64,000 bases of DNA, taken from assembly GCA_037447655.1 (NCBI GenBank), contig JBBHKE010002850.1, positions 62,001 through 126,000 on the forward strand, written 5' to 3'. Shown here in pieces: positions 4,087 to 53,213 of the stretch (positions within the stretch are counted from its first letter, which is position 1; every line of letters starts with the position of its first letter). This stretch comes from Zygnema cylindricum (lineage: Eukaryota > Streptophyta > Zygnematophyceae > Zygnematales > Zygnemataceae). The translations under genes and the position numbers were made by a program. The notes below the pieces were generated by a model. It saw nothing but the letters and a program-made list of their open reading frames with translations, was not told where the DNA came from and did not search any database.

Positions 4087-7012
4087 ATTCTTTTGGGTAT
4101 TGAGTTTTTTTTTTTTTTTTTTTTCATATCTTGTAATTATTTATTTGATAAAAACACAGATAAATACAAAAAAGAAACGAGCGAAAAAAAAGTTGAAGAT
4201 TAGAATGGGAACCTTTCGTAGAACACAATAATTTATTCATTAATATATTTGTTTTATTATCTTAGTTTAACTTTGTTTACTTTTTATTTTTTTCTGTCTC
4301 CTCTAATGATAATTATAATTCGGGTTATTACAGCCCTCTTTTTTTTTTTTGTCTACCGAGAAAAAGCAGGGGGCGGGGAGAGGGAGAGGGAGAGGGAGAG
4401 GGAGAGGAGGGGAGATGGAGAGGGAGGGAAAGGGAGAGGGAGAGGGAAAGGAAGAAAGTTATAAAGTAACGTACTATATAAACTTTTTATACCTTCAAAT
4501 AATTTATTACCTATTCAAAACAATTTTCCGTATTATGGATAAAAGGAAATAATGAAATGATCTTAAAGTTATCATTTAAAAATTTTTACATTTTTTTTTA
4601 ATTCCACAAATCCATTATTTTTCTAAATTCCCAATTTCCTTTTCATTTTCCGGAATATCTCCGGATTTTACGGAAATTTTGTAATATTGCGTAATTTCCG
4701 GAAGCTATTTCGAAACTTTCGGAGTGTCCAAATTCGCCAATGAAAGCTCCAATTTTCCTGTCCGTACAGAAATAGTACGAAATGGTACAAAATGGTACGG
4801 AATACTACAAAATAGTGTGCAGTATTACGAAAATGTAACGTATAGTACGCAGTAGTACGAAAGTACAAGTGACTTAACGCACTAAAAATTTAGTGCGTGG
4901 GGACGTGGCAGATTGTAGTCCACTCTCTTAAATAGTGTTGCTGCCACTATTTTGTCGCATTCGGTCAAAAAAAGTGGCGACCGAATTAGTGTTTATTAAC
5001 TCTAAAGTACACCGTGAATCGCTAATAGTGTTGATGTTTTTTTCGCCGCTTAAAACATCTTTTCTCCGTACACACTTGTCGGATCGAAAATCCGACGGTT
5101 CCGATCGAAAGACAAGGTTCTCACCTTCCGATTGGTGGTCTCCAATCATAAATCGGACACGTGTGTACGGAGAAAAGATGTTTTAAGCGGCTTAAAAAAA
5201 ACTTTGACCCCCTATTAGCGATTCACGGTGTACCGTACGGAGATCTTCGCAATTTCCGCTGGATGGGAAATCGAATCTTTGTTTAAATTTGTCGTCTGGT
5301 TTCTGTCAGTTTCGAAGTTCAGCGGAAACTTCCGACAATTTTGTCGTTTCTGACGCCTCCTTGTCCTGCCGTACAAGAGTGTAACGTAGGGTTTAAAAAG
5401 TACAGTACACCGTGTATCGCTATTAGTGTACGGTACACCGCGAATCGTTATTAGCGTTATGAACTCTATATCGGCGCCCCCAAATTTTGACATTGATACC
5501 TTAAATAGAATAAACTACACTATTTAAGGACGTGGACCATAATCTGCCACGTCTCCTGGCACTAAATTAGAATGAATGACGCTAATTTTTTCTTTACACT
5601 AATAATTTCTCAACGCTAATAACGATTCGCGGTGTAGTGTTGGGTATCGGGTAAATTCATATCGCGATAATTTCGATATTCGATATATCGAATATCGATC
5701 GAGCAGATTCCTCGATATATCGTACCGGGACCAACATAAATTATCGCGATATATATCGCAAAAACTTGGTGTCCGTACAGTCATAGTACGGAAAATCGTA
5801 CGGATACCCCCCCCCCCCTCAGCGCGCGCCCGGGGGAGGGGTGGGGGGGGGTTTGAAAAAAAAAAAAAAAATTAATGCCTCGATATATTGGCGATACGAT
5901 ATATCGCGATAATTTGGTTTTCGATATATCGAAGCGATATATCGATTATCGGGTACCTGAAATTCGATATATATCGAATATCGGCAAAAGGTCCTCGATA
6001 CCCAACACTAGTGTACTGTGTAGTTGATGCGTATCGAATCGGACTCGTCATGCTCTGTCGTCGATTTCGAAGCGTTTCGATCTTATTTGGATACCGCAGC
6101 TCCCTTCGGTTTTTTTATATCTCCTATATTATGCAAAACTGCCGATACAGAAGAATAGACGTTTTATTTTAAAACGTTTTTTTCAAATTCTATCAATCGC
6201 ATTATATTTTTTGAATACCGAAAAACCCGAAAATTCGACAATATCGCGATAGCCAAAATCGGTGTCCATCAATCGACGACTGTTGTAGGTGTCAGTTTAC
6301 GGTTAGTACAGAATACTAGACGGAAAATTTGGTTTTTTCACGGGGAAAAGGGGGAAGATCTTCGTTTGTCTTTTCTTTGCTTTTGGTGCACCTGTCAAGT
6401 TTAAACGCTTGAATAAAATATACCAACAAAACGTCTAACACCTTTTTTTTTCTTTTTTTCCTTTTTTTTCCATTTTAGGTGAAAGTGGACACTCTTAAAG
6501 GCCACACGATTGGTCTATTATTTTCGGCTCACGCGGTTCCCTCGGCTCGAGAATTTACTAGAATTTTGAACGAAGTTTACAAAGAACTTCGTTCAAAAGG
6601 AAAATTGTTCGAAGTGGTATTCATTTCGAACGACGAATCATCAACGATTTGGAAAGAAAGCATGAAAGAAATGAGTTGGTTAGCGATTCCTTTTTCGGAT
6701 CGAGATTCGGGCGACAATTTGGGTGCAAAATTTCAAGTTTCCGATATTCCCACTTTAATTATAATTGATTCCGAGGGAAATAAAGTTTGCGAAGACGGAG
6801 TCGAGACGATTCAAAATTTCGGAAGCAAATCGTGGCCGTTTAATTCGGAAAGGATTCAAATTTTAAGACAAGAACAAGAACGAGAACAAAGTAATAACAA
6901 CAACACTAATAACGATCATAAGAATTTTGAGAAACAAGACCGGTACGAAAATGGGTTTGGAAATAGCATAAGGAATACTCCACGGGAGAGTCAAGTGGCA
7001 CCCGAATTTTGA
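3874..7012 (+). CDS. Nucleoredoxin-like (thioredoxin-fold) protein, myristoylation signal, redox site lost
   Basis: Two exons: 3874-4047 and 6479-7012. The donor AAG|GTAACC and acceptor TTTTAG|GTG both fall between codons and give a 235-residue protein. The fold matches the nucleoredoxin subgroup: KLFEVVFISND, then SWLAIPFSD, then the cis-proline loop IPTL (Pro about 149). The active-site loop reads FSAHAVPSAREF (about 73-84), where family members have WCPPC, so both redox cysteines and the Trp are gone. The N terminus MGCYGS fits N-myristoylation at Gly2 with possible palmitoylation of Cys3, suggesting membrane attachment. The C-terminal 50 residues or so are a Gln/Asn/Glu-rich tail. A role as a non-catalytic binding or scaffold protein is inference. 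The 2.4-kb intron carries three mobile elements. The start is chosen because it is the first ATG after the CT leader and creates the lipidation motif. Confidence 0.85.
4371..4456. repeat. GGGAGA-type purine microsatellite in the intron
   Basis: A run of GGGAGA/GGGAAA units inside the intron of the nucleoredoxin-like gene. Similar purine or pyrimidine hexamer tracts recur through the window. Confidence 0.85.
5010..5230. mobile_element. MITE family A, copy 3 (intronic)
   Basis: 221 bp, near-perfect ends CACCGTGAATCGCTAATAG and CTATTAGCGATTCACGGTG, with TA at 5008-5009 and 5231-5232. The inner CGCTTAAAACATCTTTTC-type segment is mirrored at the other end. This is the best-preserved family A copy here. 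Confidence 0.85.
5434..5634. mobile_element. MITE family B, copy 1 (intronic)
   Basis: 201 bp, ends CACCGCGAATCGTTATTAG and CTAATAACGATTCGCGGTG, with TA at 5432-5433 and 5635-5636. A subterminal ATATCGGCGCCCCCAAATTT block is shared with the 36.6-kb copy. An orphan family A end lies just to the left (about 5404-5428). Confidence 0.85.
5635..6010. mobile_element. hAT-like MITE with ATATCG palindromic interior
   Basis: Terminal inverted repeats TAGTGTTGGGTATCG and CGATACCCAACACTA, the TAGNGTTGGG type often seen in hAT-derived MITEs. The interior is dense in self-complementary CGATATATCG words, with poly-C and poly-G runs near 5808-5848. I could not find a clear 8-bp target duplication. The left end abuts or overlaps the TA flank of MITE B. 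Confidence 0.6.
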
Positions 7013-15641: not shown

Positions 15642-15944
15642 AGTTCAAAAGTAGGTGTTTTATGGTAGGCCTTTTGTCGGCGACTTTAGCGTAAGTTGTG
15701 TTATGGGATTTTCATGTGATTTTCTTAGATTGCTACTTTGATCAGCGACCGTCCGATTGTCCGAAACTGACGGTGTATATAAATATTTTTGGTCTGAATG
15801 TTTTAATTGGTCCAATTTTTGGTCCGAATGTTTTAATTGGTCCGAATAAGTCCGAATACAATATGGGTCTTAAGGTTATATTGTATGTTTTGCATACAAT
15901 AGGCATACTGTATGGGCCTACTTTCACCTACATTTTGAACTATG
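15642..15944 (+). mobile_element. MITE family C, copy 1
   Basis: About 300 bp with inverted ends AGTTCAAAAGTAGGTG and CACCTACATTTTGAACT. The interior has repeated TTTTAATTGGTCC units. An 80-codon open frame is conserved with the 19.0-kb copy, but the AT-rich repetitive sequence makes real coding unlikely. Confidence 0.7.
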
Positions 15945-17135: not shown

Positions 17136-17390
17136 TACGGTGTGGTACGGTCGGTGAAGCGTGCGAAGGTGGTCTTGCGTATTTGGCGGAAATGGATTTG
17201 AAAATGTTTGACTCGTACGGTATTTGTACAATTTAATATAGTATCGCCGATTTAGTACATGCTGCTTGTGTCGCATTAAAAGCGATGGACTACAGTCGTG
17301 GACGCTCCACGTGGCAGTCACATCTCGACAAGAGCCTACAGGTGCTGACTGTCAAAGCGTTCATCCCAAGGGTGCCGATGAACACATCCT
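17136..17390. repeat. Inverted repeat, left arm (pairs with 20046-20312)
   Basis: This segment aligns to the reverse complement of 20046-20312: shared words GGCGGAAATGGATTTGAA, GACTCGTACGGTATTTGTAC, ATGGACTACAGTCGTGGA and CTCCACGTGGC. It carries indels that destroy the frame kept in the other arm. Confidence 0.75.
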
Positions 17391-18982: not shown

Positions 18983-19288
18983 CATAGTTCAAAAGTAGGC
19001 GTTTTTATGGTAGGCCTTTAGTCGACGCCTTCATCATAAGTTGTGTTATGGGCTTTTCATGTGATCTTTTTAGATCGATACTTTGATCAGCGACCGTCTG
19101 ATCGTCCAAATCTGACGGTGTACAAAAAATATTTTGGTCCGAATGTTTTAATTGGTTTAATTTTTGGTCCGAATTTTTTAATTGGTCTGAATAGGTCTGA
19201 ATACAATATGGATCTTAAGGTCATATTGTATGTTTTTCATACAATAGGCATATTGTATGGGCCTACTTTCACCTACTTTTGAACTATG
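18983..19288 (+). mobile_element. MITE family C, copy 2
   Basis: 306 bp with inverted ends CATAGTTCAAAAGTAGG and CCTACTTTTGAACTATG. It aligns end to end with 15642-15944, including the internal GGTCCGAATGTTTTAATTGG units. Confidence 0.8.
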
Positions 19289-20045: not shown

Positions 20046-20258
20046 CTTATTGGAGCCATCGACACTCTTGCAATGAACGCTGGGACAATCAGCACTTGTA
20101 TGCTCTTGTCTAAATGACCGCCACGTGGAGCATCCACGACTGTAGTCCATTCCTATCAACGCAACAGAATCATGATGTACTAAGGGAGCAATACAAACTA
20201 TAATTGTACAAATACCGTACGAGTCAAAAATCTCAAAATTCAAATCCATTTCCGCCAT
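20046..20258 (-). CDS. Open exon-like segment in the right arm of an inverted repeat
   Basis: ATG at 20258 starts a 71-codon open frame that reaches a consensus donor (AAG|GTAAGA). It includes ALIGMDYSRGCSTW and Cys/His residues further on, but no family I recognise. The left arm of the repeat (17.1-17.4 kb) holds a decayed version, so this may be the first exon of a duplicated gene or of a mobile element. I keep it as a low-confidence hypothetical. Confidence 0.3.
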
Positions 20259-21526: not shown

Positions 21527-21755
21527 CTGCTGCGCTGCTCTGCTGTTGTGTTGCTCTGCTGCTGCGCTGCTCTGCTGTATAGCAGCTGCTCTGCTGTATA
21601 GCAGCTGCGCTGCTGTATAGCAGCTGCGTTGTTGTATAGCAGCTGCGCTGCTGTATAGCAGCTGCGCTGCTCTGTTGTATAGCAGCTGCGGTGCTCTGTC
21701 TGTATAGCAGCTGCGCTGCTTTGTTTGTAAAGTAGCTGCGCTGCTCTGAGACTGA
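21527..21755. repeat. Palindromic minisatellite (GCAGCTGCGCTGCTGTATA type)
   Basis: Starts as a GCTGCTCTGCT-type repeat and passes into about nine units of roughly 20 bp, each containing the self-complementary stretch GCTGCTGTATAGCAGC. It lies immediately beyond the broken 3' end of the gypsy element. Confidence 0.85.
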
Positions 21756-21939: not shown

Positions 21940-22440
21940 AATCCCACTGAATCCATTCTCCATGTCCAACGTGGAGTAGATGGTGGCCCCAGCAAGAGAG
22001 TCGAAGATCTCTTTTGGGGTAGGCATATGATAACGGTCGGAGACAGTCGCCGCGTTGAGCATTCGGTAGTCCCCACACATCCAGAAATCTACAGTTTTTT
22101 TGGAGAAGTCTTTCTTTGGCGGGAGTACGGTTGGTGAAGCAAACCCATGTAGCCTTGTACTCTCCTAAATCAACCCTGCGTCTACCAAAGTCTGCACCTT
22201 TGAAGTGATGATTTCTTTTTCCTTGAAACTGAGAGGGTACTGCTTTTGCCAAACAGTTGCCGTCTCATCGATCAGGTCAATCCGAAAAGGGGTCCCCTTA
22301 TAGATCCCTACATCTATGTCAGACCAGGCGAACACCTGCCCGTTCTCTTCTAAGAGCTTAGAGAGCCGTGCCTTTTGCTGTGGGTCTAGCTGTTCACCTA
22401 GAGTCCAGTCCATCTTCCCGGGTTCCATTGCCGCCAATGC
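21940..22440 (-). pseudogene. Ty3/gypsy reverse transcriptase, N-terminal fragment
   Basis: The frame shows the classic Ty3 entry to RT: QVFAWSDIDVGIYKGTPFRI, then a QYPLSFKEKEII-type segment, then LVDAGLI. After one in-frame TAG (22165-22167) it continues through ASPTVLPPKKD, CGDYRMLNAAT, DRYHMPTP and YSTLDMENGFSGI. The order fits RT motifs up to the first catalytic Asp (LD in STLD). The sequence ends before the YxDD motif, at the edge of a minisatellite. The upstream part is in the same open frame as the methyltransferase C terminus, joined by a linker of about 130 residues with two SSVGG repeats. Confidence 0.8.
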
Positions 22441-22784
22441 TTCCGGTGGCCTACCCAAGAGGGAGATGTCGAAATTCAGCTCTACCTGTGGATCTGTCCC
22501 TTGTTCAGCTGTTACAACTTCCCCTAAGCTGTCCTGTTCTGAGCTTCCGTCCCCCCCCACTGAGGAAACTCCTGGGTCTAGTGTGCTATTGCTCCCCCCC
22601 ACTGAGGAAGTTCCTGGGTTTGGTATGATATTTAAATGTAATTTGGTGAATGTGAATTTTTCCCTCCTTGTCTTTCTCCCCCCCTCAAGCTTTAAAGTTG
22701 CGTGCATGGCCAATAACTGTGGGGCTTGAAGGTATGTTGTCCGTGATGGTGGAGACTGAAAGCTTGAGAATGCAAGAGAATGTT

Positions 22785-23720
22785 TCAGCACCCAAGAAAT
22801 TGCATTTAAATCCATACTTTGTCCGATTGAACTGCACCTTCTTGAGGCCGAGACCCATGGCGCAGTTGTGGTTCCTTGTTGAAATCCTATTGCTTGCTCC
22901 CTTTTTGCAATATTTGGCTCTGTCCATGTGGCGGTTGTACTGTCACATATCATTCCTGGTGAGCCCTTCCGGTAAGCATGGCTGTTAGGAAAAGATACCA
23001 GGGTTGGTAGGGCCTTCCTTGGATATCCGGGTTTATTGCAAGAGAAAAAGGGTGCTCGGTCGGCTTTGGTCACTGGAGTGGCCATGCGCCCTGGTCCGAG
23101 AATGTGTTGAACTGTGATGTTGGGATCCGTAACTTAGGTTTTCAACAGCTTTTAGAGGATGTGAAGAGGAACCAAGTTGGTCCAATAAGCGTGAACTCGG
23201 AGGGCTCTTGATCTGACCTGAGTTGCATCAAAAACTTTTGGAGTCCCAAGAACCTTGGTCACTTTGTTCCAGCTCTTGACCACCTGTTTTTTTTTTTTCA
23301 CATGTTGGGTGAACATTTTCCAAGACGTACCCCATTAGCGTATCATGGCGTTCCTGCATCTTTGTTATTAGTCGCGACATGTGGAAGAATGTTCTACTCC
23401 GGATATCTTGGTGTCCCCTGCCCTGTATTGCTAACGAATACCCTTGGCACGCCCATCCAGCAATTACCAGATCCACCCTTCTAAGCTTTTCCAAATGTGA
23501 ATTGGTGATGTTGTCCACATTTTGGGGAAGCGTGCGGTGAGAGTTGAACATGGCAGACAGTATGAGTTGCTGTGAGTAAAGTTGGTGAAGCTGTTGCAGT
23601 CAGTACTCACTGACTCCACGGGCGTTAAGAACAATCTCGACTGCTGAGTACGCTTCTACTACGTATCCAACTTTTAGGACGGCCTCCAGATCGGAGCTAA
23701 TGCCGGAAAAAAATGATTTA
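22785..23720 (-). pseudogene. C5-cytosine DNA methyltransferase domain inside the gypsy pol
   Basis: Motifs in order on the minus strand. Motif I: FFSGISSDLEAVLKVGY (from about 23716). Motif IV: VIAGWACQGYS, with the catalytic Cys codon at 23447-23449; the usual Pro before Cys is Ala. An arginine/aspartate stretch GHQDIRSRTFF follows. Motif VI: ENV at 23312-23320. Motif VIII: SRALRVHAYWTNL within 23179-23217. Further on come PTLVSFPNSHAY and REQAIGFQQGTT. Motif X-like: IGQSMDLNAISW at about 22792-22824. Damage: TGA at 23600-23602, a frameshift at a 12-bp T run (23287-23298), TAA at 23152-23154 and 23134-23136. The C-terminal block shares one open frame (23085-22168) with the RT start. In the cell such an enzyme would methylate DNA cytosine using S-adenosylmethionine; this copy cannot be made whole. 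Motif identities are seen; the functional role in the element is inferred. Confidence 0.8.
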
Positions 23721-23933
23721 AATCTTGAGTCCTGAGGGCAGGACCTCTAGTGACACTACCTGTCGATTGAAGTCTTCCCCTTTGTAAGGAGCTGTTGGAA
23801 GTTTTGAGCGGGGAACCTTTGTTGTTCCAGGTAATATTGCAGCAAAGCTCCTTACCACTTCCCGCCAAAGTGTGGCCATCTGTCTTAATCGATTTTGGTA
23901 CTCCCTTTCCCACCCCTTAGAAATAGGGAATTG

Positions 23934-24779
23934 CTAGATGGAATTGGCGATTTCGGTGGAGTAGTCGAAAAGCTCCGAAGGGGTTGAGGTAGAGTATATT
24001 GGATAGCAACCAAACACCGGAACAGCTGTTTTTCCTCGGTTCCATAACTCCAAGGGGACCAACACTTTGGTGCCCTCCGGATTCTGAGGGTCTAAGACTG
24101 TGATTTGTTCCCTCCATACGCTCAATTCCAGGTTCAATCTTGTCCACGTTGCCATTCCCAGCAAAATTTTGAATTGTTTACCTTCCACCACTAGGAAAGG
24201 AAGCTGAACTTGAACATGTTGGCCTGCGTCATCCGCAAGTTCGATTTCCATGGCTTTTATGATACCATATAGTGGTTGGCTCCCACTGTTGACCGTGCTC
24301 AGGCATATGTCGCTGGGGCTGATTTTCGGCCGGAGTTCCTCGGGCATTTGTTGTAATGCTGAGGTGGTGATGAGATTAGGGAGAGCTTCGGTATCCACCA
24401 CTGCATCCTGGTACCCGCCGTATCCATTAAGTTTAAAATTTCCCGTTCTGTTTAGAATAAGAGCCACTGACAGGGCCTTATAATCTCTATCCGCCATAGA
24501 AGTTTTTGGTTCCGCCGACATGAAGACTGTCTTGGGTGGTTCTGCCAACGCGACCCTTTCCCTCCTGGTGTGAATCTCTTCCCCCAGTGCCTGAATGAGG
24601 GTTTCTTCGGGCAGATTGTGGGAGGAAGCTAGCGTCTTGACGTGCGTCAGGGCGTAGGGCATCAAGTGCCGTACTAGCATGACTGCCGGTTTGGAGGAAG
24701 GAGGGTGAGCTTTGGGCGATGAAATTGGTGAGTCCTCGTCCTCCAATTTCTCTTGTCTCCTCCCCCCCTTCTTCCTCAT
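23934..24779 (-). pseudogene. Retroviral-type aspartic protease region of the gypsy element
   Basis: A 281-codon open frame. The catalytic loop is AVVDTEALPNLI (normally DTG or DSG, so the Gly is replaced by Glu), followed by PLYGIIKAMEIEL and the flap/second half with ILLGMATWTRLNLELSVWRE, matching Ty3-type proteases (LLGM..W...). The glycine loss probably makes it inactive. It is followed downstream, after about 200 bp, by the methyltransferase motifs. Confidence 0.7.
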
Positions 24780-24866
24780 TTTATGCGTCAGAATTCGATG
24801 TGGGAGGTGTCACTGGCGGATTCGTGGGTGGTCTCTCGGCCAAGTATCTTTCGAACCATTCCTGAT

Positions 24867-25685
24867 CTATTTCGCGGGTTGCAGTATCTTTTTCCGGTTG
24901 GGGTTTCTTAAAATTTTCGAAACCGAATGAAGTTTCTTTGGAGCCATGGGAGGCGGATGAGTCGGTTTCAGGCCTAGCCTAATGTCATTGTTCGGAAGGT
25001 TTGCCCGCGGTGTAAAAGATAAGGGACCCGTGGCTTTGCGGCTGTGGTCATTTTGTTCCATCGGCTGTTTGTCCTTTCTCTGGGAGGACGTTGTAGAGCG
25101 GAGTTGCCTGCGATTGTCCCCTAAACCAACGTTCCAGGCCACGGACAGAAATGTCTGAGCATGATGAGCCTTCGGCGGCTCCATATCCCAACCCATTAGT
25201 TGATCAACATCATCACCCACCGTAGTGTGCTGCTCCAGCTCCGCTAGCCTTTGTAACAATTCTTGTTTTTGTTTTTGCAGTTTTTGAGCAGGCGTAAGAG
25301 GATGAGGTGTGCGGGCAGGTGATCCCAGGCAGAGAGCAGCCAGCTCTGCTGCCAAGGCGGCCAATTGAGTGCTCTGCTGCTGAATGATATGTTCCGGAGT
25401 CAGTCTGCTGGGTCCTGGTTCATCTGGAGATCGACGTCCCCAAGGATACAAAAGTTGTAATGGAAGAGGATTAACGGTTGTTTCCCTTTCTCTCGTGAAC
25501 AAGGCATATTGCATCATCTCCTTTGGGACTCTATTTTTCCGGAAACATTGTCCTTCTTTATGGCCCATGAACCCACAGGCCTCACATTTTGACCCCTCAC
25601 TAGTATACTTTCCCCTTAGCTCATTTGTGATCTTAGCATTATCAAATTTAGGAAGTCTAATTTGTCTCAACTGGGATAGAGACAT
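24867..25685 (-). pseudogene. Gypsy Gag C-terminal / zinc-knuckle region
   Basis: A 272-codon frame with CEACGFMGHKEGQCF near its start, a CxxCxxxGHxxxxC-type zinc knuckle of retrotransposon Gag. It is followed by a Gln/Leu-rich stretch (LAALAAELAALC, then KLQKQKQELLQRLAELEQ) that could form a coiled coil. It lies upstream of the protease frame, consistent with a gag-pol order. Probably broken relative to the capsid frame at 26839-26177. Confidence 0.6.
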
Positions 25686-26176
25686 CTTAGCGGTTTTAGA
25701 CCGTGGAGTAGGTTTAAGGTGTCCTTGTTGACTAGCGTGCGGTCTCCTCCTCCTCCTCCTCCTCCTTGCTTGCGTTACTGCTGCTTTCGGGTACGTTCTG
25801 CACGTTCTTTCTCAAACTAATATTGCTTGATGGTGAGTTCTGGGTTGAGCTTCCTTGGACATCGTTTCCACCCGTGACCGATTTGGTTGTAGTTCAGGCA
25901 AATTTATAGGTAAACTCTTTCGTCCGCGCCCATTGCAAGTTCGGGTTTGCTGTCCGATTCTTGTTTCCCTTTAAGCTTCCGCAAAGCTTAAAGTTCGGTC
26001 TGTTCCTCTTGGCTGAGAGATGATTCCCCAGCGAAACCTGCAAAGTTGGCTCTTGAATTCCTGGTCACAGCCTTTTCCCTCGCTTCGCTGTGCACAAAAT
26101 GATCATACAACTTCATGGCGGCCAATGAGATTTCCTGAGCCGTGGGATTTCGGTCGTCAATGGCTTGACTGGCACT

Positions 26177-26839
26177 CTAATTGTCGAGAGCTGCCTGCCT
26201 TGTTGGCCCGAACGAATTTCGAACAGCAACATAATACTTTGTGGCCATAGCCAGGGTATCAATGATTGACAATTTGGTCTTCTGGCAGAGGCTGGAGAGG
26301 CGATTCAACAACGTCTGAGGGGTCTCATTCTTCAAACAGCGGAAGTCAGTAAGCTCTTTAATTGCAATTTCATTCCTTTCTGTGTAAAGGAGTCTCCATG
26401 CGTCCAGAAGAGTGCTGCAGGGATTCGGGTTGGCGACCATCCGGGTGGCTGCCTCAGCGGCCTGTACGGCCTGCAGGTGGTTGACATAGGCCCTGCCTTG
26501 GGCCTGCAGTTTCATGTCCATGGTGAAAGTGGGGGTAAGAGGAGCTGCGGCGGCAGCAACCAGGTCGCCCGCTGCTTGAAGAACCTCGGCGTCCAGAACC
26601 GGATCCAATATTTTGATGCTTGGAGCCATCAACAAAGGCTGACGCTCCTTATTGTCGGCCAAAGCTCCTCCGGCTAGATAATTGACCATCATTGGGAACA
26701 GAGTGGTTTCAAAATTTGTTGGGATGGCCCCCTCCCTGTATTTGTTGATTTCAGACTGCATGAAGGATTTCCACAGCAGTTTGAAATCAAAGAAAGGAAT
26801 TCCGGAGTTATCCCCGGTGAAGATCCGGATGTCTCCCAT
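26177..26839 (-). pseudogene. Gypsy Gag capsid-like region
   Basis: A 220-codon frame beginning MGDIRIFTGDNSGIPFFDF and ending VAVRNSFGPTRQ. It has an Ala-rich centre and the pattern ETPQTLLNRLSSLCQKTKL, as in retrotransposon Gag (UBN2/RETROTRANS-gag-like) regions. Placement before the zinc knuckle supports the call. The match is by pattern and position, not by a named motif. Confidence 0.5.
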
Positions 26840-27329
26840 TCTCTTTTCTTCTTCGGTAAGATTATGGAACCTTGGTGATGCCTGTTCGGTCGGGCTGACA
26901 AATTAAGCCGGTGAGATTGCTCGAGGATCTGCTACCTCGAGATCCGAACCGGTACCTCCTCTAATAGGAAAGGCGGTTATACCAACAGTAGTCCCCCCCC
27001 CCCCCCCACTGAGGAAGGTTTGGTCCTTGAAAAAGTGGGATAGTTGTCTACCCCTCTATATCCAGGAGAGGCGCGTGCTTTCTTAAGAACTTCCACCTCC
27101 GATGGTATGTGAAGACGAGGTCGAGGTTCCCGAGGAATGGATGGCGATGGAGAGGGTGATGACTGGAAGCTTGGAGGAGAAAGTGACTGTTTCCCGAAAG
27201 GAGTCTGCTTCCTAGGTCGCCTTTGGGAATCTTCGGAGGAGGAGGTCCGGAACTAGTGGATGGCGACCGTCTGTGAGGAGGCGAGTAGACGTCGGGTTTG
27301 TGGGGTAGGCAAAGTGAACCTGGTGACCC

Positions 27330-28849: not shown

Positions 28850-29397
28850 GACTTACAGGAGCAGATGAGCTAGATCTCTCTGATAAAGTCCACCACCCTA
28901 AACAGCTATCCTTTTAAACAAAAGGGGACAGTTGCTTTTCAGTACTGCGCTTTTTCCATCGAAAACCGAATAAATGCTACTCCCCTGACCACTCTCCAAA
29001 TAATAGAAAAAGAAGGATAGTCGTTTGATCCGGCCCACAAGAATTACGGACAGAAACCCAACGACGACCACAAGAGTACGCAAATAACTCCCACGCAGAA
29101 ATATAGAAACAATAAAAATCGGCTCTTTTAGATTAAACATTATCACCTTGCCCCAAAGAATGGAAATAAGATATAGGTAAATAATAATGGTGAAGCAAGC
29201 AAACATACCTCGGAGTGCAAAGATGACCAAACTCAGAAGAAAGAAACTCTCATAATGGCCCCGAAGACAGATATGAGTCTCCCTCACCCCTCGGTTCCGC
29301 CGTACGGATCCGACAAGACTCTTCTAAGTTTCAAACAGCGAAAGTCCAAACCGCCCAAAGAGAGAATAGTGCCAACCACCCACCCGAGCTACGGTCT
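28850..29397. other. Leader/flank of the gypsy element, unassigned
   Basis: No gene recognised. It could hold 5' leader or LTR sequence of the gypsy element, but no matching second copy exists in the window to prove it. A minus-strand frame at 28898-29287 is hydrophobic and has no family signature. Confidence 0.3.
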
Positions 29398-30135
29398 CCA
29401 CAAAAGACAATCCAAAACAAAGATGGCAATAGAGTCAACGACACAATGCAACAGTTCTCCAACAAAAAGGTTGATTTAATTCTCGGCGGGTTTTCTCAGG
29501 AGACAGTACTGAAAAAGCCACCTGTCTCCTTCGGTCCAAGTGCCTTATACAACCAAAGTTTGTCCTACTGCAAGTGCCAAAGTCAAAGCAATTCCAAAAG
29601 CAAATCAGCGGCCACTAATTGTTATCGCACCGACATAAGACAAAACAGACTGTACTACACTCAGGGCAAAAAGTTAGGCGACTGGTTCTGACAAGAATCG
29701 CAGCCACGGATCCTTCTATTGTACACTAGTGGGCAACAAAGTCCTGAATTGACGTGAAACGCCTAACTTTGACCCAGTATCATAAATGTTCTGCCAATCG
29801 GTTAGACCCAAACTAACATCCTACTAACAACTAACAGCAAGATCTACCGGAAAATCTTAAAGGCTGCGTGCCGTTCCACAATGTACCCCTCCGCTAGAGC
29901 TACACAGAACGGATGCCATGTGATGGAGACGCCACATTTGCACCGGACTAACTCCGCAGCCCGACCTCCGTTTAAGGTGAACTAGAGTGCGTTGTGCTCC
30001 ATGGTAAAAATACAAAGTTTTGATCCGACGAGTTGTCCCCACCCCTTCTCCGTATGCTGGAGTCCGTACAAGGTGGAACGAGGCCCTGAGACTTCTAGGA
30101 GTGCAAATGTGCCGAAGATGCACACGAGCTTGACA
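29398..30135 (-). repeat. 738-bp long direct repeat, copy 1 (LTR-like)
   Basis: Aligns along its length with 32229-32963 in the same orientation (shared ends CCACAAAAGAC and GCACACGAGCTTGACA; shared interior AGTGCCTTATAC and CCACAATGTACCC). On the minus strand it begins TGTCAAGCTCG. Size and placement around copia sequence suggest LTRs, but the far end lacks a clear CA and coding sequence abuts it directly. Confidence 0.65.
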
Positions 30136-32228
30136 TTATTTGAATCACTACTCTCAATCTTGTCATCACCCTCATTCTCAAAAGGTGTCTCTTTTGATGT
30201 CACATTGTTTGTGTGAGTGGATGATTCTCTAATGACCTTGTCCCTTTGTGCTTCGTTGCTGGTGGACTTAGGTTTCGGAACTTTCTCTAAAGCCTGCTCT
30301 ACAAATCGCACCTTTTTCTTTGTCCCTACCTCTATTAAGAATTCTTTTTCTTCCTCCTCCTCTCTTGTGAATTTTTCATAATGACTATCCTCCTCGTAAT
30401 CTTGGGCCCGTTTATGCTCATTAGCTCTTTTTACCATCCTTTCCAAATTTTCATTGAACTCTACATTTCTAGACTCTCGGACCCTCCCAGTAACGGGATT
30501 ATAAATCCGATACTGCATCGAGTTTTCACTATATCCCACAAAGTATCCTTCCCATGAACGTGCTGCAAACTTCTCCTCCCGATTTCTTTCCTCTACATAT
30601 CCGATAGCCTCACATCCCCAAATCCTTAAATGTTTTACCGTAGGCACTTATCCACTCCAAAGTTCCTCCGGTGTTTTGTTACCTAAAGCCGAGTTAATTC
30701 TCCGGTTGGTAACATGATTTGCCGCCCTGATTGCCTCTCCCCAAAGTCGATGAGTGAGTTTTGTCGTATGGAGCATGGCCCTCACCATCCCTTGCAATGT
30801 CTGATTTTTCCTCTCTGCTACTCTTTTGATTGTGGGGAATAACGAGCCGTGAACTGCTGCTTAATACTCGTCTCTTTACAATATTCGGCGAAGGCAAGAA
30901 ATTCACCTCCACGGTCCGATCGCATTGCTTTTACCTGCCTCCCACTTTCCCTCTCAGCCATAACCACAAAATCTAAAAAATGTCTCTAATGCTTCTGATT
31001 TTGCCTTCAAAATGTACACCCATGTCTTCTTGCTGAAATCATCAACTATCACCATAATGTATTTATTTTTTCCAATGGTTTCTAGATGTATGTCACCACA
31101 AAGGTCTACATGAACTAGGTCTAAAGGGGCATTTGCTTTGAACTGAAGGTCTTTCACCGGATGAGGCTTCCTTTTATGCTTCCCTTTTGTGCATCCTACA
31201 CATCCGATAACCTTTTCTCCTGTCTTCACGTCTAGTCCCCGAACCGCACCATGACGAATCATCTCTTTGATATTACTCTCTGAAGTGTGACACATCAGAT
31301 GATGCCACAACGTGAGGTCCTCCTTGTTGACCTCAGCCGAATGAAGGTGCCCTTCTTCGTCCGCCGTCCTATTTTCTGGTTTTCTCCAAATCAGCCTACT
31401 TTGCATATTTTAATTTACAACCCCCTCTGCAAATGGTCCAGTTTTACTACTCAAAATGATTCAACCCCCTTCTACGCATGTGGCTCTTCCACCTTTCCTT
31501 TGAAGTTGTGGGACACTTAAGAGATTAATGCACCCCCCCGGATTATAAAGCTCATTATTAAAACATACTCTATTGACTTTAGTTTTCCCTTCCCTATCTT
31601 GTGTCAGTAGATCCAATCGTACTGTTCCCAGTGTATCAATAACCATCATCGAACCATTAGCCACTATGATGGATTTTGGTATAGTGAGTTTTCTAATATC
31701 ACTGAATAGTCCGGGGTCTGAACACATGTGATGGGTAGCACCTGAGTCCATGATCCAATTGCTAAATTTTCCTTTACCATCTTTGCCTCGTGTGTGAAAT
31801 AGGATATCCTCTTTTTCCTGTGATTCCTCCATAAGTGAAATGAAGAGTTCTTAATCCTGTCCCATTGTCCCATCCCCACAAAATCCCCTCTACTTGATGA
31901 ACCAATTCCTCAACTTCCTCAACCTCTAAATTGTCCCCCTTCTGCGATTGTTTCCCTTGAGTGTGTCCCTATTTATGACAAACGTTACACTGTTTACTTT
32001 TTTCTGGGCATTCAAAAGAGCCATGTCCAGTCTCGTTACAATTGTAACAAGTCATCTGAGATGTATCACGTTGATATGAGCCTCTCCCTAGGCCCTGTGA
32101 CCTGCCTCCTCATCCACGATGTCCACCTCCTCTCCCCGTATATCCCCTAAGGATGTAAGCTCCTCCGTCATCCTCCTCTTGATAACTCTGATAGGATGAC
32201 CCCTTGTTTTCCTCTTTCGGTGTTGCTT
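30136..32228 (-). pseudogene. Ty1/copia gag-PR-integrase fragment, no RT
   Basis: Minus strand, in order: a Gag zinc-knuckle remnant (about 32050-31970), aspartic protease with DSGATHHMCSD (31760-31725), GAG-pre-integrase (LTLWHHLMCHTSESNIKEM, then GCVGCTKGKHKRKP), integrase core (LDLVHVDLCGDIH, then VIVDDFSKKTWVYILKAKSE), the D(x)E part in shifted frames near 30900, and the integrase C-terminal segment (LRIWGCEAIGY, SWEGYFVGYSENSMQYRIY) at 30640-30400. RT and RNase H are missing: integrase runs straight into the repeat at 30135. Several frameshifts are present. Confidence 0.75.
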
Positions 32229-37333: not shown

Positions 37334-38095
37334 TTAAATGGAATTTGACTTTATCATCACTACACCGCGAATCGTAACTAGTGTAAAGAAAAAATTAGAG
37401 TAAAAAAACAAAAAAAAAACAATAAGAGTTAAGAACGACTCTTCAAGTGATTGATAGCGTATGCCATTGTTGGTTTCTCTCGCCCCTTGATAACCTCCTT
37501 TGCTACTGCAAACTTGCTTGGAAGACTCCTTTATAAAGACAAACAACCTTTCTTTTTTTGTAGGAAAGTTATTGAGTGAGTTAAGTTGTTCTATGATGAC
37601 ATTAAACCTTTTTACTCCATCATCAATGGACTCATTCTCCTCCATTCTAAACCCAATATATTCTTCAAAGAGATAATTTTCATTTGCCTCAAACCCCTTT
37701 TCAAACGCATTTTGCAAAGTGGTCCAACAATCAAAAGCCCTATCATGAGTTAGAAGGTGTTCATGCATAGAACTAGCACAACTTTGTATAAGTGCGGCGG
37801 AGGCCGCCATATCTTTCTTGTCCCACTTATGTGCTCGAGCTGGATCCACGGAAAGATCCGGTCGTGTTTCTTCCCCGATAACGATGTCCCAAAGTTTTTT
37901 CGGTGTGAATGCTCCTCGAATGTATCTCTTCCAAATTGCATAGTTGGAACCCGTGAAGACAATGGTTTTATTAAACACTTTNNNNNNNNNNCCTCTCCCT
38001 CTCCCTCTCCCTCTCCCTCTCCCTCTCCTCACCTCTGTGGCAGTTGCAGATTTGACACCTCCCCCTTGTGGCCGTTTTGCCGTGATTTTTGACAT
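37334..38095 (-). pseudogene. Ty1/copia Gag (UBN2-type) fragment, contains an assembly gap
   Basis: ATG at 38095; Arg/Gly repeat (encoded by a CCTCTC microsatellite), then a 10-N gap at 37982-37991, then typical copia Gag: FTGSNYAIWKRYIRGAF, KKLWDIVIGEE, a WDKKDMAASAALIQS-type segment and MEENESIDDGVKRFNVIIEQ. The frame runs out near 37440 where a solitary MITE end (TA then CACCGCGAATCG, 37361 onward) lies. It sits inside what would be the seventh intron of the carrier gene. Confidence 0.8.
37982..37991. other. Assembly gap of 10 N in a microsatellite
   Basis: The gap lies at the edge of a CTCTCC repeat, so repeat length there, and the number of Arg/Gly codons in the Gag fragment, is not reliable. 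Confidence 0.98.
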
Positions 38096-38184
38096 AAGAC
38101 TCTCATATATGGCGAACTGAATCGCAGGGTTACTGACCTAAAGAACAAAAGAAAGGAGAAATCCAGTGACTGATAAGTCTACTA

Positions 38185-49592: not shown

Positions 49593-51480
49593 TTAAACCA
49601 CCTCTTCAAAAAGTGCCTCATAATCATTGTATTCCTCTAAGTCTTCCTCATGATTGGGTTCATCATCTTGAATGTCGGCCTCTCGAAAGAGTTGGAGTAA
49701 ATCTCGTGCAGGAGCCGAAGGAGGTGGCACCTCGTCGCCATCGAAATGATTTCGCCATTTCATTATTATGTCTTGCAACTCTTGAGTAAGCATGCTCTCC
49801 TCCCATTTGCCATCCTTTAATGACAATCCACATTGGATCATCGCCTTTCGTGCATATCCCATGCCATTTTTGTCCTTCATTTCGTTCACCTCTCGTATCG
49901 AATCGCGTGCCAATGTTAAGAAAAAGGCTTTACCCGGTCCAACTAACTTACCATACCATTTTTGGCCCCTAGGTAAGGACCACTTGTGGCTCTCTACCCC
50001 CTTCATCTTCCAATCTTCCCATTTTCTTGACCACACCTCTTTGATTTTAAAAATTACAAATGAATCGGCAGGTTGCACTAAATGCATTGCACAGGGAGGA
50101 AAATATTGGAGTGTTGTTCTTTTTGCGCGTAAAGCGGTGTTTAATTCCTCGGACACATTGTGACCGCCACAATTGTCCACAATTATAACCTTTTCAAGCC
50201 CATCACGGTCTCTTTGGCATGACCTCGGTTCAGCGATCCATTGTGGCAAGACCGTCTTGTCGTTCCAACCTTTCCGCCCGGTACCGTAACAAACTCTTAC
50301 AGAAGAGAGTGGGAAAAGATATTGAGTGAGGGAGGGAGAGAGAGGGCCACAAGTGTATAGGGAGAAATCAATATAACAACATATCACTCCATATATAATA
50401 TTTTGGGTGTGGAGTACAAGGGAGAATAAGTGAGACAATAGCGTTAATATTTATAAGGAAAAAGATTCATGGGGAAAGGAAAACACCTGGAATGTCATCG
50501 TGGATGCCCTTGATCGGGTAATTAAGGAGCTTGTTGGAGAAGATTAACATAGGAGATTCAATTCGGGCGTTCACTCCGTCGTGAGTCGAACCATCAAAGT
50601 CATCGACTCTCCACCTCCGACAACATCCGCGTATTCGACCACCTCGTACCCGCGAAAACCCAACGTCTTTTTGTTATCCATTTTTACAATCGCGTGGGTC
50701 TTGTCCATGTTCGACTAGATCCTTGTTGTAGCGACCTATAATCACAATAACACATAAAATTGTAAGAAAAACACAACACAGAAATGTATGATGGTCGGGG
50801 CAACTACTTTCATTCGCTTATTTGCATTTATCCCTAGAAAACAAAATTTAAAATAATATATGCAACATATATTACAGCATATAGCAATGAGTTGTACAAA
50901 TGTTCAAAAAACTTACCCGATAAAAATCCTCTTTTTAATTCGCCCATGTGATATGCTACTTTTTTTTCGATGTATTCTTCCTTCTCCGGGCTTAATTGTA
51001 CCTTTCCTTTTTGAGCCCTCGTCATAATACTGTGTTTTTCACAAAACCGTTGAGTCCATCGTTTTGTCATTTTCATTTTTATCTCCTTACCCTTTTTGTC
51101 GATGAATAGTCTCATATTCTCCTCCTTCATACGTTTAATGATATGAGCTGCCATGGTCCTTACAATGGTTTGGGACATTTTCATACCCGCCTTCTTGAAG
51201 CGGTAAAACTCCTCCACCAACTACGAGTGCATTGCTGTGACCCATGGAAATTCCTTCCTCCCCCTACCCGGCAGTGCCTTTGTCACCACCACACTTCTTT
51301 TTCCGAATTCCGCAGACGACAAAGTATGTTTCGTCGCCCGTATGTCTCTCAATGTCCCAACCTGACCCTTCCACCACCGACTTGCTTTTTGGTATTTTGC
51401 AACGTAAAGAAAGGGAAAGAAAAACATGTCAGTCATATTTTATATAAAAAAACTTATATATATCATAAAAAAAATGGTTT

Positions 51481-51610: not shown

Positions 51611-53213
51611 CGTAATGTCAAACATACCACAAGTCAAAAAAATAAATATTAAGCATGTAAGTGAGTGGGTGAAATATGGGAAGTGATAGAGTGGAGTAAG
51701 AGTTAGTAAGAAATACATACCAATTACCGTTTTTTTTTTTCGACAATGCCCGTGTGAGCCTCATCAATTGCCCTCGATCTGCTCGTATTTGTTCTTGTTG
51801 AGCCGCTACTTGATGAGTGAGTGCGGCAATTATTAATGGCAAATCCTCTCCTCTCGGTGGTGACGGTGGCCTAATCGGTGGCGGAACACTTTGTATTTCC
51901 CATAGGCGAGGGCGTGGCACTTTGACATTGCGAAACTTTTCCAATATCGTCGTACGATCATCTCGGAGAGCAAGTACCTCGGGAGTTACTCGACAATATT
52001 TTAGGATGTTGTATAGCCGGGGATCCCACGGATGATGATGACGTAGCAACTCCGGGACATTCACCCGAAAACCGTCCTCCCCACAAACAACCCATGTTAA
52101 CCGCGGATTTGCCGGATCAAATTGCCTTGTGTGGGCAAAGGTCGAGCCTCGGTCCTCAAGCGAGATAAACAACCATGTTGGATGTGCGGTGACATCTGGA
52201 GGGATGCCGAGAATTTGCGGAAAAGGATTCGCTTCCGGGTTTAGGGGCCGGGGTTCACCATACTTCCAATGTGCCGGCCATTTGGCAACCAAAATATAAT
52301 GTTCGGGTCGAGGCACGAAACTTTCCATTTCCTTCCCTCCCATGGGAGGAGGAAAATACCAATCGGGATGCTCAACCGGGTATGGAGGTTGAGGATGCGG
52401 AGGAGCCATTATAATGGCTCTCTCCCTATTTGGCGTGGGAGGTGCCCCGAACATGTCGTCGTCATCATCAAATTCCTACTCACGTTGTTTTTCCTCACTA
52501 TCCGGGGTTTGTTCGTCCTCCGTGGTGGGATCATCCTCGTTTTTCCACACCACGATGTCGGTGGGTTCCAAAATTTCGGGTTCGGGCTTGTCTTCCGGCG
52601 GTTCTTCACTATCCTCGATGCTCTCGTCGCTATCCGAAGACGATGGGACGTATAATTTGTCATTGTCATCTTTCACTTTACTCTTACCCTTTGCTATCTC
52701 TTTCTTCCTAGCTATCTTACTCCGTGGTTCAATCCCCCCACATTTCTCGACGATCGCCTGCCCCCCCACTCCTTCCTCCTCCACTGTCTCACAAAACCCT
52801 ATTTTTTTTTTTATTATTATCCTTCTTTTTGTACCTAATCTTCCTCTAACCTCACTCGACCTACCCTCTTCAACCGTCGCCTCCTTTCCCTTTCTTTCCT
52901 CTCCCAACCATGTCTTCCCCTCCCTCTCTTCACTCAACAACTTCTCTTCCCTAAAACCCCCACCTTTTCCCTCCTCGTTGCCCCCATCAAAAAGTATTTT
53001 TTTTCTTTTTATTATTTTACATTTTTTCTCTACCTTTTCCCGTGCCTCACTTCCCTCACCCTCTTCTCTCGTCGCCTCTATCTCCCCCCCGTCTACACCC
53101 ATTACCGTCTTTTCACCCTCCTCTAATGGAATTTTTTCTCCCTTACTCATCTCACTTTCCACCGCCTCCCCTCTCCTCACATCTACCGAATCACCCCTTT
53201 CCTCCCTTCCCTC

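What the first reader, a model, noticed from the sequence alone, without database searches (positions are those of the whole stretch)
22785..23720. A cytosine DNA methyltransferase domain lies between protease and reverse transcriptase of a Ty3/gypsy element
Seen: methyltransferase motifs I, IV (Cys at 23447-23449), VI (ENV), VIII and X in canonical order on the minus strand, flanked by Ty3-type protease and RT. Known: from memory, methyltransferases captured by retrotransposons have been reported in a few eukaryotes such as dinoflagellates and a charophyte alga; this is rare. Inference: the element family gained an enzyme that could methylate its own copies or counter host control. The copy is broken, so its relatives matter more than itself.
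Basis: partly seen in the sequence, partly recalled or inferred. Interest (0 to 1): 0.92.

Follow-up and report, generated by a model that had tools for sequence, protein, structure and literature searches.

The report
Retrotransposons carrying a DNA methyltransferase
This stretch holds a broken copy of a jumping gene; at 52 other places in the same genome the same kind of DNA-methylating enzyme sits joined to reverse transcriptase, and the enzyme likely marks the element's own new DNA copies.

Summary
On the minus strand, 23725-22768 matches the 320-residue DNMT3-type cytosine methyltransferase of an open relative (77% and 84% identity in two pieces, a frameshift between them), between a protease and a Ty3/gypsy reverse transcriptase (RT). 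This copy is a relic, cut off inside RT at 21949. Its genome (353 Mb; GRAS genes, so probably a streptophyte) has 123 scored DNA_methylase matches; in a DNMT-RT search 52 of 67 listed matches run from DNMT into RT. One copy is a single 2395-aa ORF with identical 931-bp repeats. The DNMT shows purifying selection; nearest solved relatives are DNMT3 enzymes. The kind is known: KnitGypsy-Dnmt3 of Klebsormidium (2018). Not found described in my searches: (1) a conserved stop between protease and DNMT (UAG in 21 of 22 subfamily-A copies), likely a readthrough site; (2) a PHD finger ending pol (48 of 51 rows with room for one; not the window's subfamily A); (3) relatives labelled Closterium, Cymbomonas and Mesvir1 plus metagenomes, with the DNMT in two fixed places (PR-DNMT-RT or RH-DNMT-IN) that sort the DNMT and RT trees with one change each. 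Self-methylation of cDNA is the likeliest role, untested.

The parts
28960..30135 (-). left terminal repeat A1 of the element (starts TGTC at 30135)
   Evidence: blastn to A of copy C1374, 81.9% over 1,185 columns
24867..26902 (-). gag region, named by position; ORFs 26177-26902 and 24867-25811, the latter with a CCHC-like knuckle seen by eye
   Evidence: ORFs; 83% DNA identity to C1374; no gag family reached Pfam cut-off
23934..24809 (-). protease ORF, ends at the UAG (23936-23934) that lies in frame before the DNMT in relatives
   Evidence: Pfam gag-asp_proteas E 0.15, below cut-off; relative L006 Asp_protease_2 2.1e-4, below cut-off; stop context
22768..23725 (-). DNMT3-type cytosine-5 methyltransferase domain, broken by a frameshift near 23288-23274 and by stops; catalytic Cys codon 23449-23447
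   Evidence: Pfam 8.5e-7 for one piece; 77% and 84% identity over residues 2-147 and 152-320 of 320 to C1374
21949..22305 (-). start of the Ty3/gypsy reverse transcriptase, cut off at 21949; RNase H, integrase, PHD and right repeats are missing
   Evidence: Pfam RVT_1 E 0.031, below cut-off; 82.7% DNA identity to C1374 ends here

Best explanation
The window holds a truncated relic of a Ty3/gypsy retrotransposon family whose pol polyprotein carries a DNMT3-type cytosine methyltransferase, which likely methylates the element's own newly made cDNA before integration. Shown from sequence: the order A1 - gag region - protease - (UAG in subfamily A) - DNMT - RT - RNase H - integrase - PHD or PHD-like end - purine tract - B1 - GC - A2 - B2 in the fullest copies; low dN/dS in the DNMT; young copies with open frames; relatives in several green algae. 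Inferred: in subfamily A most ribosomes would stop at the UAG and make Gag-protease, while a minority would read through and make DNMT-Pol, so that the enzyme is carried with RT and integrase. There it would act on fresh double-stranded cDNA, so that incoming DNA resembles methylated host repeats or is shielded from attack. The PHD finger (clear in subfamily B and most relatives) would bind histone tails and steer insertion. A further inference from the split repeats: ordinary reverse transcription with a B-GC-A terminal repeat, then integration through a circular form cut at GACA-GC-TGTC.
For: DNMT and RT in one alignment at 52 of 67 listed matches (60 of 4263 candidates scored). dN/dS 0.10-0.36 in the 12 computable of 55 pairs (42 saturated, 1 identical). 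Cys 94 and Glu-Asn 137-138 invariant in 10 aligned copies. Sequence and predicted fold nearest to DNMT3 enzymes. C1344: one 2395-aa ORF, 931-bp repeats 100% identical. Stop between protease and DNMT in 22 of 22 subfamily-A copies, TAG in 21 and TAA in one. DNMT placement sorts both the RT and the DNMT tree with one change, so enzyme and pol descended together. The 2018 paper showed that related retrotransposon DNMT3s (SymbioDIRS) methylate CG in yeast (PMC5890265).
Against: In the same paper the Klebsormidium gypsy DNMT gave no methylation in yeast, judged inconclusive by its authors because DNMT3B also failed. CpG depletion is not a clear footprint: observed/expected 0.61-0.66 in subfamily A, 0.89-0.92 in B, 1.01 in the rest of the window, 0.63-1.28 in flanks, without raised TpG in the A copies other than the window's. 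UAG-CAA-UUC fits only 5 of 6 letters of CARYYA, and all six mattered in a mammalian construct (PMC4132726 passages); no covarying RNA structure follows. Subfamily B has Glu for Pro in motif IV (WECQG). The fold model is poor over 93-110, which contains the catalytic Cys. Subfamily A's PHD is atypical and below Pfam cut-off. No expression or methylation data.
Confidence: 0.55

Rival explanations
1. The enzyme acts mainly on the host or on other transposons: DNMT-Pol in the nucleus methylates host DNA or competitors, or disturbs host methylation to the element's benefit.
For: A DNMT3-type catalytic domain under purifying selection would work on any DNA; the 2018 authors discuss host-wide effects for Symbiodinium (PMC5890265).
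Against: The domain is fixed inside pol at two places next to RT and integrase, which suggests a role in the particle or the integration complex; the Klebsormidium methylome was land-plant-like (PMC5890265).
Confidence: 0.2
2. The domain is kept for another job, for example as a nucleic-acid-binding or RNA-methylating part of the particle, not for DNA methylation.
For: Negative yeast assay for the Klebsormidium domain (PMC5890265); motif IV WECQG in subfamily B.
Against: Cys and the Glu-Asn of motif VI are invariant in 10 aligned copies; nearest relatives are DNA enzymes, DNMT3A/3B/3C.
Confidence: 0.15
3. For the UAG step only: the stop is a true end of Gag-protease, and DNMT-Pol is made by reinitiation, a separate transcript or splicing rather than by readthrough.
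For: CARYYA fit is 5 of 6; no downstream structure; the stop-free genome count did not complete.
Against: Protease and DNMT-Pol are in the same frame across the stop; TAG-CAA-TTC-CC is invariant in 10 aligned copies from divergent clades; the codons after the stop encode conserved protein (QFPIS).
Confidence: 0.3
4. A chance juxtaposition or a one-off fusion in the window.
For: Only the broken window copy, taken alone.
Against: Many copies with the same arrangement in this genome and 61 pol-type proteins elsewhere.
Confidence: 0.01

Closest known systems
KnitGypsy-Dnmt3 of the charophyte Klebsormidium nitens (de Mendoza et al. 2018, PMC5890265)
   Same: DNMT3-type domain in the Pol ORF of an LTR gypsy element, DIRS-like repeat layout, low Ka/Ks, streptophyte host (probable here).
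   Different: Here: a conserved stop before the DNMT in subfamily A, a PHD finger in subfamily B and most relatives, two DNMT placements, relatives in further green algae. K. nitens sequences were not among my labelled hits, so direct kinship was not tested; the paper's figures are not held, so its domain order was not seen.
SymbioDIRS-Dnmt3 and SymbioLINE-Dnmt of dinoflagellates (PMC5890265)
   Same: Retrotransposons with a captured cytosine DNMT; SymbioDIRS-Dnmt3 active on CG in yeast.
   Different: Other retrotransposon classes (tyrosine-recombinase DIRS, LINE); these elements have an rve integrase.
DNMT3A/DNMT3B de novo methyltransferases
   Same: Unpermuted catalytic domain, best sequence and fold match.
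   Different: About 20-24% identity in the listed fold matches; embedded in pol; the PHD finger sits about a thousand residues away at the other end of pol, not in an ADD domain.
Chromodomain gypsy elements (chromoviruses)
   Same: A chromatin-reader domain after the integrase (recalled; listing only).
Tobacco mosaic virus type stop readthrough (UAG-CARYYA; PMC4132726 passages)
   Same: UAG followed by CAAUUC, 5 of 6 letters.
   Different: Sixth letter C; lies between Gag-protease and DNMT-Pol; activity not tested.

Membership tests
Ty3/gypsy LTR retrotransposon | pol order protease, RT, RNase H, integrase with rve core | tested here: met
   C1374 and C1344 ORFs; the window copy keeps protease to RT only
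Ty3/gypsy LTR retrotransposon | terminal repeats TG...CA and short target-site duplication | tested here: inconclusive
   TGTC...GACA ends in five copies; exact 4-bp duplication in C1344 and C829, 3 of 4 letters in C1100 and C449, none in C1374; repeats are split A - B-A-B, not plain LTRs
KnitGypsy-Dnmt3 | DNMT3 domain inside gypsy Pol | tested here: met
KnitGypsy-Dnmt3 | DIRS-like repeat layout A-coding-B-A-B | tested here: met
   5 of 10 stretches read: C1344, C829, C1374 (with an extra 3.8-kb segment), C1100, C449; the window copy has only A1
KnitGypsy-Dnmt3 | sequence kinship to the K. nitens elements | not tested
   no record labelled Klebsormidium among the listed hits
DNMT3-type cytosine-5 DNA methyltransferase | best match DNMT3, unpermuted motif order, catalytic Cys and motif VI Glu-Asn | tested here: met
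DNMT3-type cytosine-5 DNA methyltransferase | DNA methylation activity | not testable with these tools
DIRS | tyrosine recombinase, no rve integrase | tested here: not met
   rve integrase in the pol ORFs scanned; the rest of the stretches was not scanned for a tyrosine recombinase
PHD finger protein | C4HC3 zinc pattern after the integrase | tested here: inconclusive
   met in subfamily B (Pfam 3.4e-10; PDB 3.4e-17) and in 48 of 51 rows; not met in subfamily A, the window's own subfamily; lost in the window copy
Programmed stop-codon readthrough | conserved in-frame stop with conserved coding sequence on both sides and a stimulatory context | tested here: inconclusive
   stop in 22 of 22, TAG in 21; context 5 of 6 letters of CARYYA; stop-free genome count unanswered

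The most novel reading that the evidence does not exclude
One ancient gypsy lineage of the green line took up a DNMT3 once and has kept it, mostly with a PHD finger, ever since, moving the enzyme once within pol (between the PR-RT and the RH-IN place). The element would thereby be a self-contained epigenetic writer and reader: it methylates its own cDNA, doses the writer by stop-codon readthrough in one branch, and chooses insertion chromatin through the PHD finger.
Probability: 0.3. Interest if true: 0.85.

Novelty: new variant of a known kind. Interest (0 to 1): 0.62.

Why it matters
Transposons are normally targets of cytosine methylation, so a retrotransposon lineage that keeps its own DNMT3 under selection asks why being methylated pays. 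The 2018 report knew the gypsy case from one charophyte. Here the arrangement appears in large numbers in another, probably streptophyte, genome and in records labelled Closterium, Cymbomonas and Mesvir1 and metagenomes, usually with a PHD finger. The role becomes testable in parts: the DNMT domain, the PHD finger and a 60-nt UAG context can each be assayed alone.

Tried and rejected
Rejected: chance or single fusion. Membership in DIRS despite the repeat layout (rve integrase; exact 4-bp duplications in 2 of 5 copies). Closterium, Cymbomonas or Mesvir1 as the window's own species: their labelled proteins are at most 42% identical to my queries, which argues against but does not exclude it.

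Dropped claim: the DNMT trees drew the RH-IN elements inside the PR-RT elements, which would give the direction of the move (in one search, 0 of 200 bootstrap trees had the PR-RT rows as one side of a branch). AU tests did not reject the PR-RT rows as one clade: p 0.825, where the held tree was 25 log units better, and p 0.297. The direction is left open. The second test (29 RH-IN rows held together, p 6e-8) left out the unassigned rows P0047 and P0006, which nest among them; I do not read it as evidence against that group, but no test with them included was run.

Led nowhere: RNA structure after the UAG. CpG depletion as a footprint (mixed). Copy C544 as a single-unit integration (A-coding-B only, no target duplication). 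Host naming by matK (no match, and no control genome rang) and by 18S rRNA (not completed).

Limits: score only the best candidates (123 of 782; 60 of 4263), so copy numbers are lower bounds, and not each of the 123 was shown to lie in an element. I read 31 of the 123 places (8 loci, 8 more as 20-kb stretches, 15 more as pieces): 21 subfamily A, 9 subfamily B, 1 (C514, L007) that matched neither query. The 11 copies for dN/dS were chosen for open frames; C2678 and C82 have one stop each, skipped. The third subfamily-A clade (C412 and kin) was not. In one search the rows were anchored on TAG, so the count rests on having tried all 22 subfamily-A copies, which were found by their DNMT; the 22nd, C1999, has TAA (read from the frames). 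The genome count of 258 also required TAG. Relatives were found by DNMT searches, so the share with a PHD finger says nothing about gypsy elements without a DNMT. One search drew one member of the outgroup (human DNMT3A) on a long branch.

Full report
What is in the window. A minus-strand relic of a Ty3/gypsy element runs from its left repeat (30135) to 21949, where it is cut off inside the reverse transcriptase. DNMT homology covers 23725-22768: residues 2-147 at 77% and 152-320 at 84% of the domain of copy C1374, with a frameshift in an A-run between the pieces and some stops. The ORF piece 23228-23599 passes the Pfam DNA_methylase cut-off (8.5e-7). Protease and RT pieces are below Pfam cut-offs by themselves, but 26932-21949 is 82.7% identical in DNA to C1374, whose RT, RNase H and integrase are clear and whose protease is just under its cut-off.

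The family in this genome. The assembly (352.8 Mb, 2689 contigs) gave 123 scored DNA_methylase matches among 782 candidates. A query of DNMT plus RT from C1374 gave 67 listed matches (60 of 4263 candidates scored); 52 of the 67, the query's own place included, run in one alignment from inside the DNMT (start at 164 or earlier) into the RT (end at 646 or later), many with internal stops. I read 31 of the 123 places: 21 of subfamily A, to which the window belongs, 9 of subfamily B, 1 unclassified. A and B are roughly 37-45% identical in the DNMT over the long alignments; B has WECQG instead of WPCQG in motif IV (one B copy has a stop at the W, another S). C1344 (B) is a single 2395-aa ORF with 931-bp repeats that are 100% identical; C1374 (A) has a 1520-aa ORF from DNMT to the pol end. 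Repeat identities run from 100% (C1344), 99.6% (C829), 97.8% (C1374) and 96.0% (C1100) to 80.3% (C449), so insertions span a long time. Copies with open frames exist.

The enzyme. It is DNMT3-like and unpermuted: the best PDB sequence hits are DNMT3A (1.3e-14), then DNMT3C and 3B; DRM2 matches weakly and over part. The predicted fold (mean pLDDT 74.9, pTM 0.80) is poor over 93-110, 169-176 and 220-239, the first of which holds the catalytic Cys. All 50 listed Foldseek matches (119 had E up to 0.001) are DNMT3 structures. Across 11 copies dN/dS is 0.10-0.36 in the 12 computable pairs of 55; 42 pairs are synonymous-saturated and 1 is identical. Cys 94 and Glu-Asn 137-138 are invariant in 10 aligned copies.

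The stop codon. Between protease and DNMT, in frame, each of 22 subfamily-A copies (window included) has a stop: TAG in 21, TAA in one broken copy, C1999. The copies were found by their DNMT, not by the stop. The next codons are CAA in 20 and TTC in 20 of the 21 TAG copies. C1374 and C665 are synonymous-saturated in the DNMT; a third clade is 57-59% identical in protein. In a 10-sequence alignment TAGCAATTCCC is an unbroken invariant block. The 20-base context with TAG occurs 258 times in the genome, against 1 for the reversed control; the count with the stop left free did not complete. UAG-CAA-UUC fits five of six letters of CARYYA, the TMV readthrough hexamer; PMC4132726 (passages) found all six important in a mammalian construct. 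No covarying structure lies downstream. I predict readthrough; C1344 of subfamily B reads through without any stop.

The PHD finger. Subfamily B's pol ends in a PHD finger (Pfam 3.4e-10; best PDB match PHF12, 3.4e-17, then lid, BAZ2B, WSTF and PHF21A). Subfamily A has a weak, atypical one (0.0035, below cut-off). Of 51 rows with an integrase and at least 110 residues after it, 48 have a C4HC3 pattern; the three without are the two own subfamily-A rows and P0136. Several of the nearest solved PHD fingers are, from memory, readers of unmodified H3K4; this is a lead only.

Repeats. The layout A1 - coding - G-rich purine tract - B1 - GC - A2 - B2 is complete in 5 of 10 stretches. Outer ends are TGTC...GACA, with exact 4-bp duplications in C1344 (TTGG) and C829 (AAGG), 3 of 4 letters in C1100 and C449, none in C1374, which also has an extra segment of about 3.8 kb. 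The inner junction reads GACAGCTGTC in all five, and a 17-base version occurs 134 times in the genome against 0 for the control; these sites were not each tied to a DNMT copy. Because the purine tract lies directly before B1, canonical reverse transcription would give B-GC-A terminal repeats; the observed layout would arise if integrase acted on a circular form at GACA-GC-TGTC. This is my inference. Copy C544 has A-coding-B only and no duplication, which neither supports nor refutes it. The DIRS-like layout of KnitGypsy-Dnmt3 was already reported (Fig. 4 legend, PMC5890265).

Relatives elsewhere. Three protein searches (one search lists 120 of 186 hits) gave relatives in metagenomes and, by source labels, in Closterium sp. 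NIES-53 and NIES-54 (P0075, P0176, P0189) and Cymbomonas tetramitiformis (P0082, P0190-P0192), and one labelled Mesvir1 (P0172; Mesostigma viride, recalled). Of 77 rows examined (74 chosen from the hits plus 3 own), 16 have the DNMT after the protease or before RT, 59 have it after RNase H or, in shorter pieces, before integrase, and 2 could not be assigned. Placement changes once on the RT-RNase H tree (50 rows and 5 outgroup rows; RH-IN group SH-aLRT 99; the PR-RT side 47) and once on the DNMT tree (83 rows; RH-IN group 100; 100/98 in a careful tree of 52 rows with 29 of 58 RH-IN rows). So DNMT and pol appear to have descended together in two lines. The retrotransposon DNMTs group apart from human DNMT3A and four metagenome enzymes (99). 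This favours one old capture and one move, but host algal DNMT3s were not in the tree, two captures from related hosts are not excluded, and the direction is not resolved.

Host. The genome has 27 GRAS matches (none in 14 control genomes, which the answer does not show to include plants); from memory, GRAS genes among eukaryotes point to streptophytes. The species was not identified.

What is known. The 2018 paper (parts 1-4 of 7 of its main section read; figures not held) established DNMT3 capture by gypsy in K. nitens. PMC12344493 (passages) mentions retrotransposon DNMT3s, in its words in LTR Copia and DIRS families, with reference to that paper. The listings showed no paper, by title or abstract start, on a readthrough stop, a PHD finger or the second placement in such elements; subscription papers and bioRxiv are largely outside the library.

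Verdict. A real family of a known kind with new anatomical features and copies that look recently active. Self-methylation of cDNA is the likeliest role and is untested.

Noticed in passing
window 30957-31850 (-) and 37337-38137 (-): Pieces of Copia-type elements: gag_pre-integrase, Pol_BBD and a copia-type gag polypeptide.
   Followed up: partly
window 49596-50450 (-): DDE_1 superfamily transposase piece (E 1.2e-8), with a Tc5-like HTH just under cut-off at 50837-51220.
   Followed up: partly
window 6479-7009 (+): Thioredoxin_8 domain in an open stretch (E 3.1e-20), possibly an exon of a nucleoredoxin-like host gene.
   Followed up: partly
window 21547-21714: Array of a 19-bp unit just beyond the broken end of the element.
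   Followed up: no
window 15658-15935 and 19003-19280; 17188-17320 and 20115-20247: A 278-nt direct repeat (88%) and a 133-nt inverted repeat (78%), perhaps another mobile element.
   Followed up: no
window 51621-52475 (-): ORF of 285 aa without a Pfam match; a similar reading frame lies beside element copy C449, so it is probably repetitive.
   Followed up: no
P0184: A DNMT-bearing gypsy pol protein is filed under a Minisyncoccia bacterium MAG; probably eukaryotic contamination.
   Followed up: no
C544, 3207-14290 of its 20-kb stretch: A copy with A-coding-B only, lacking A2 and B2, without target duplication; single-unit integration or deletion.
   Followed up: partly
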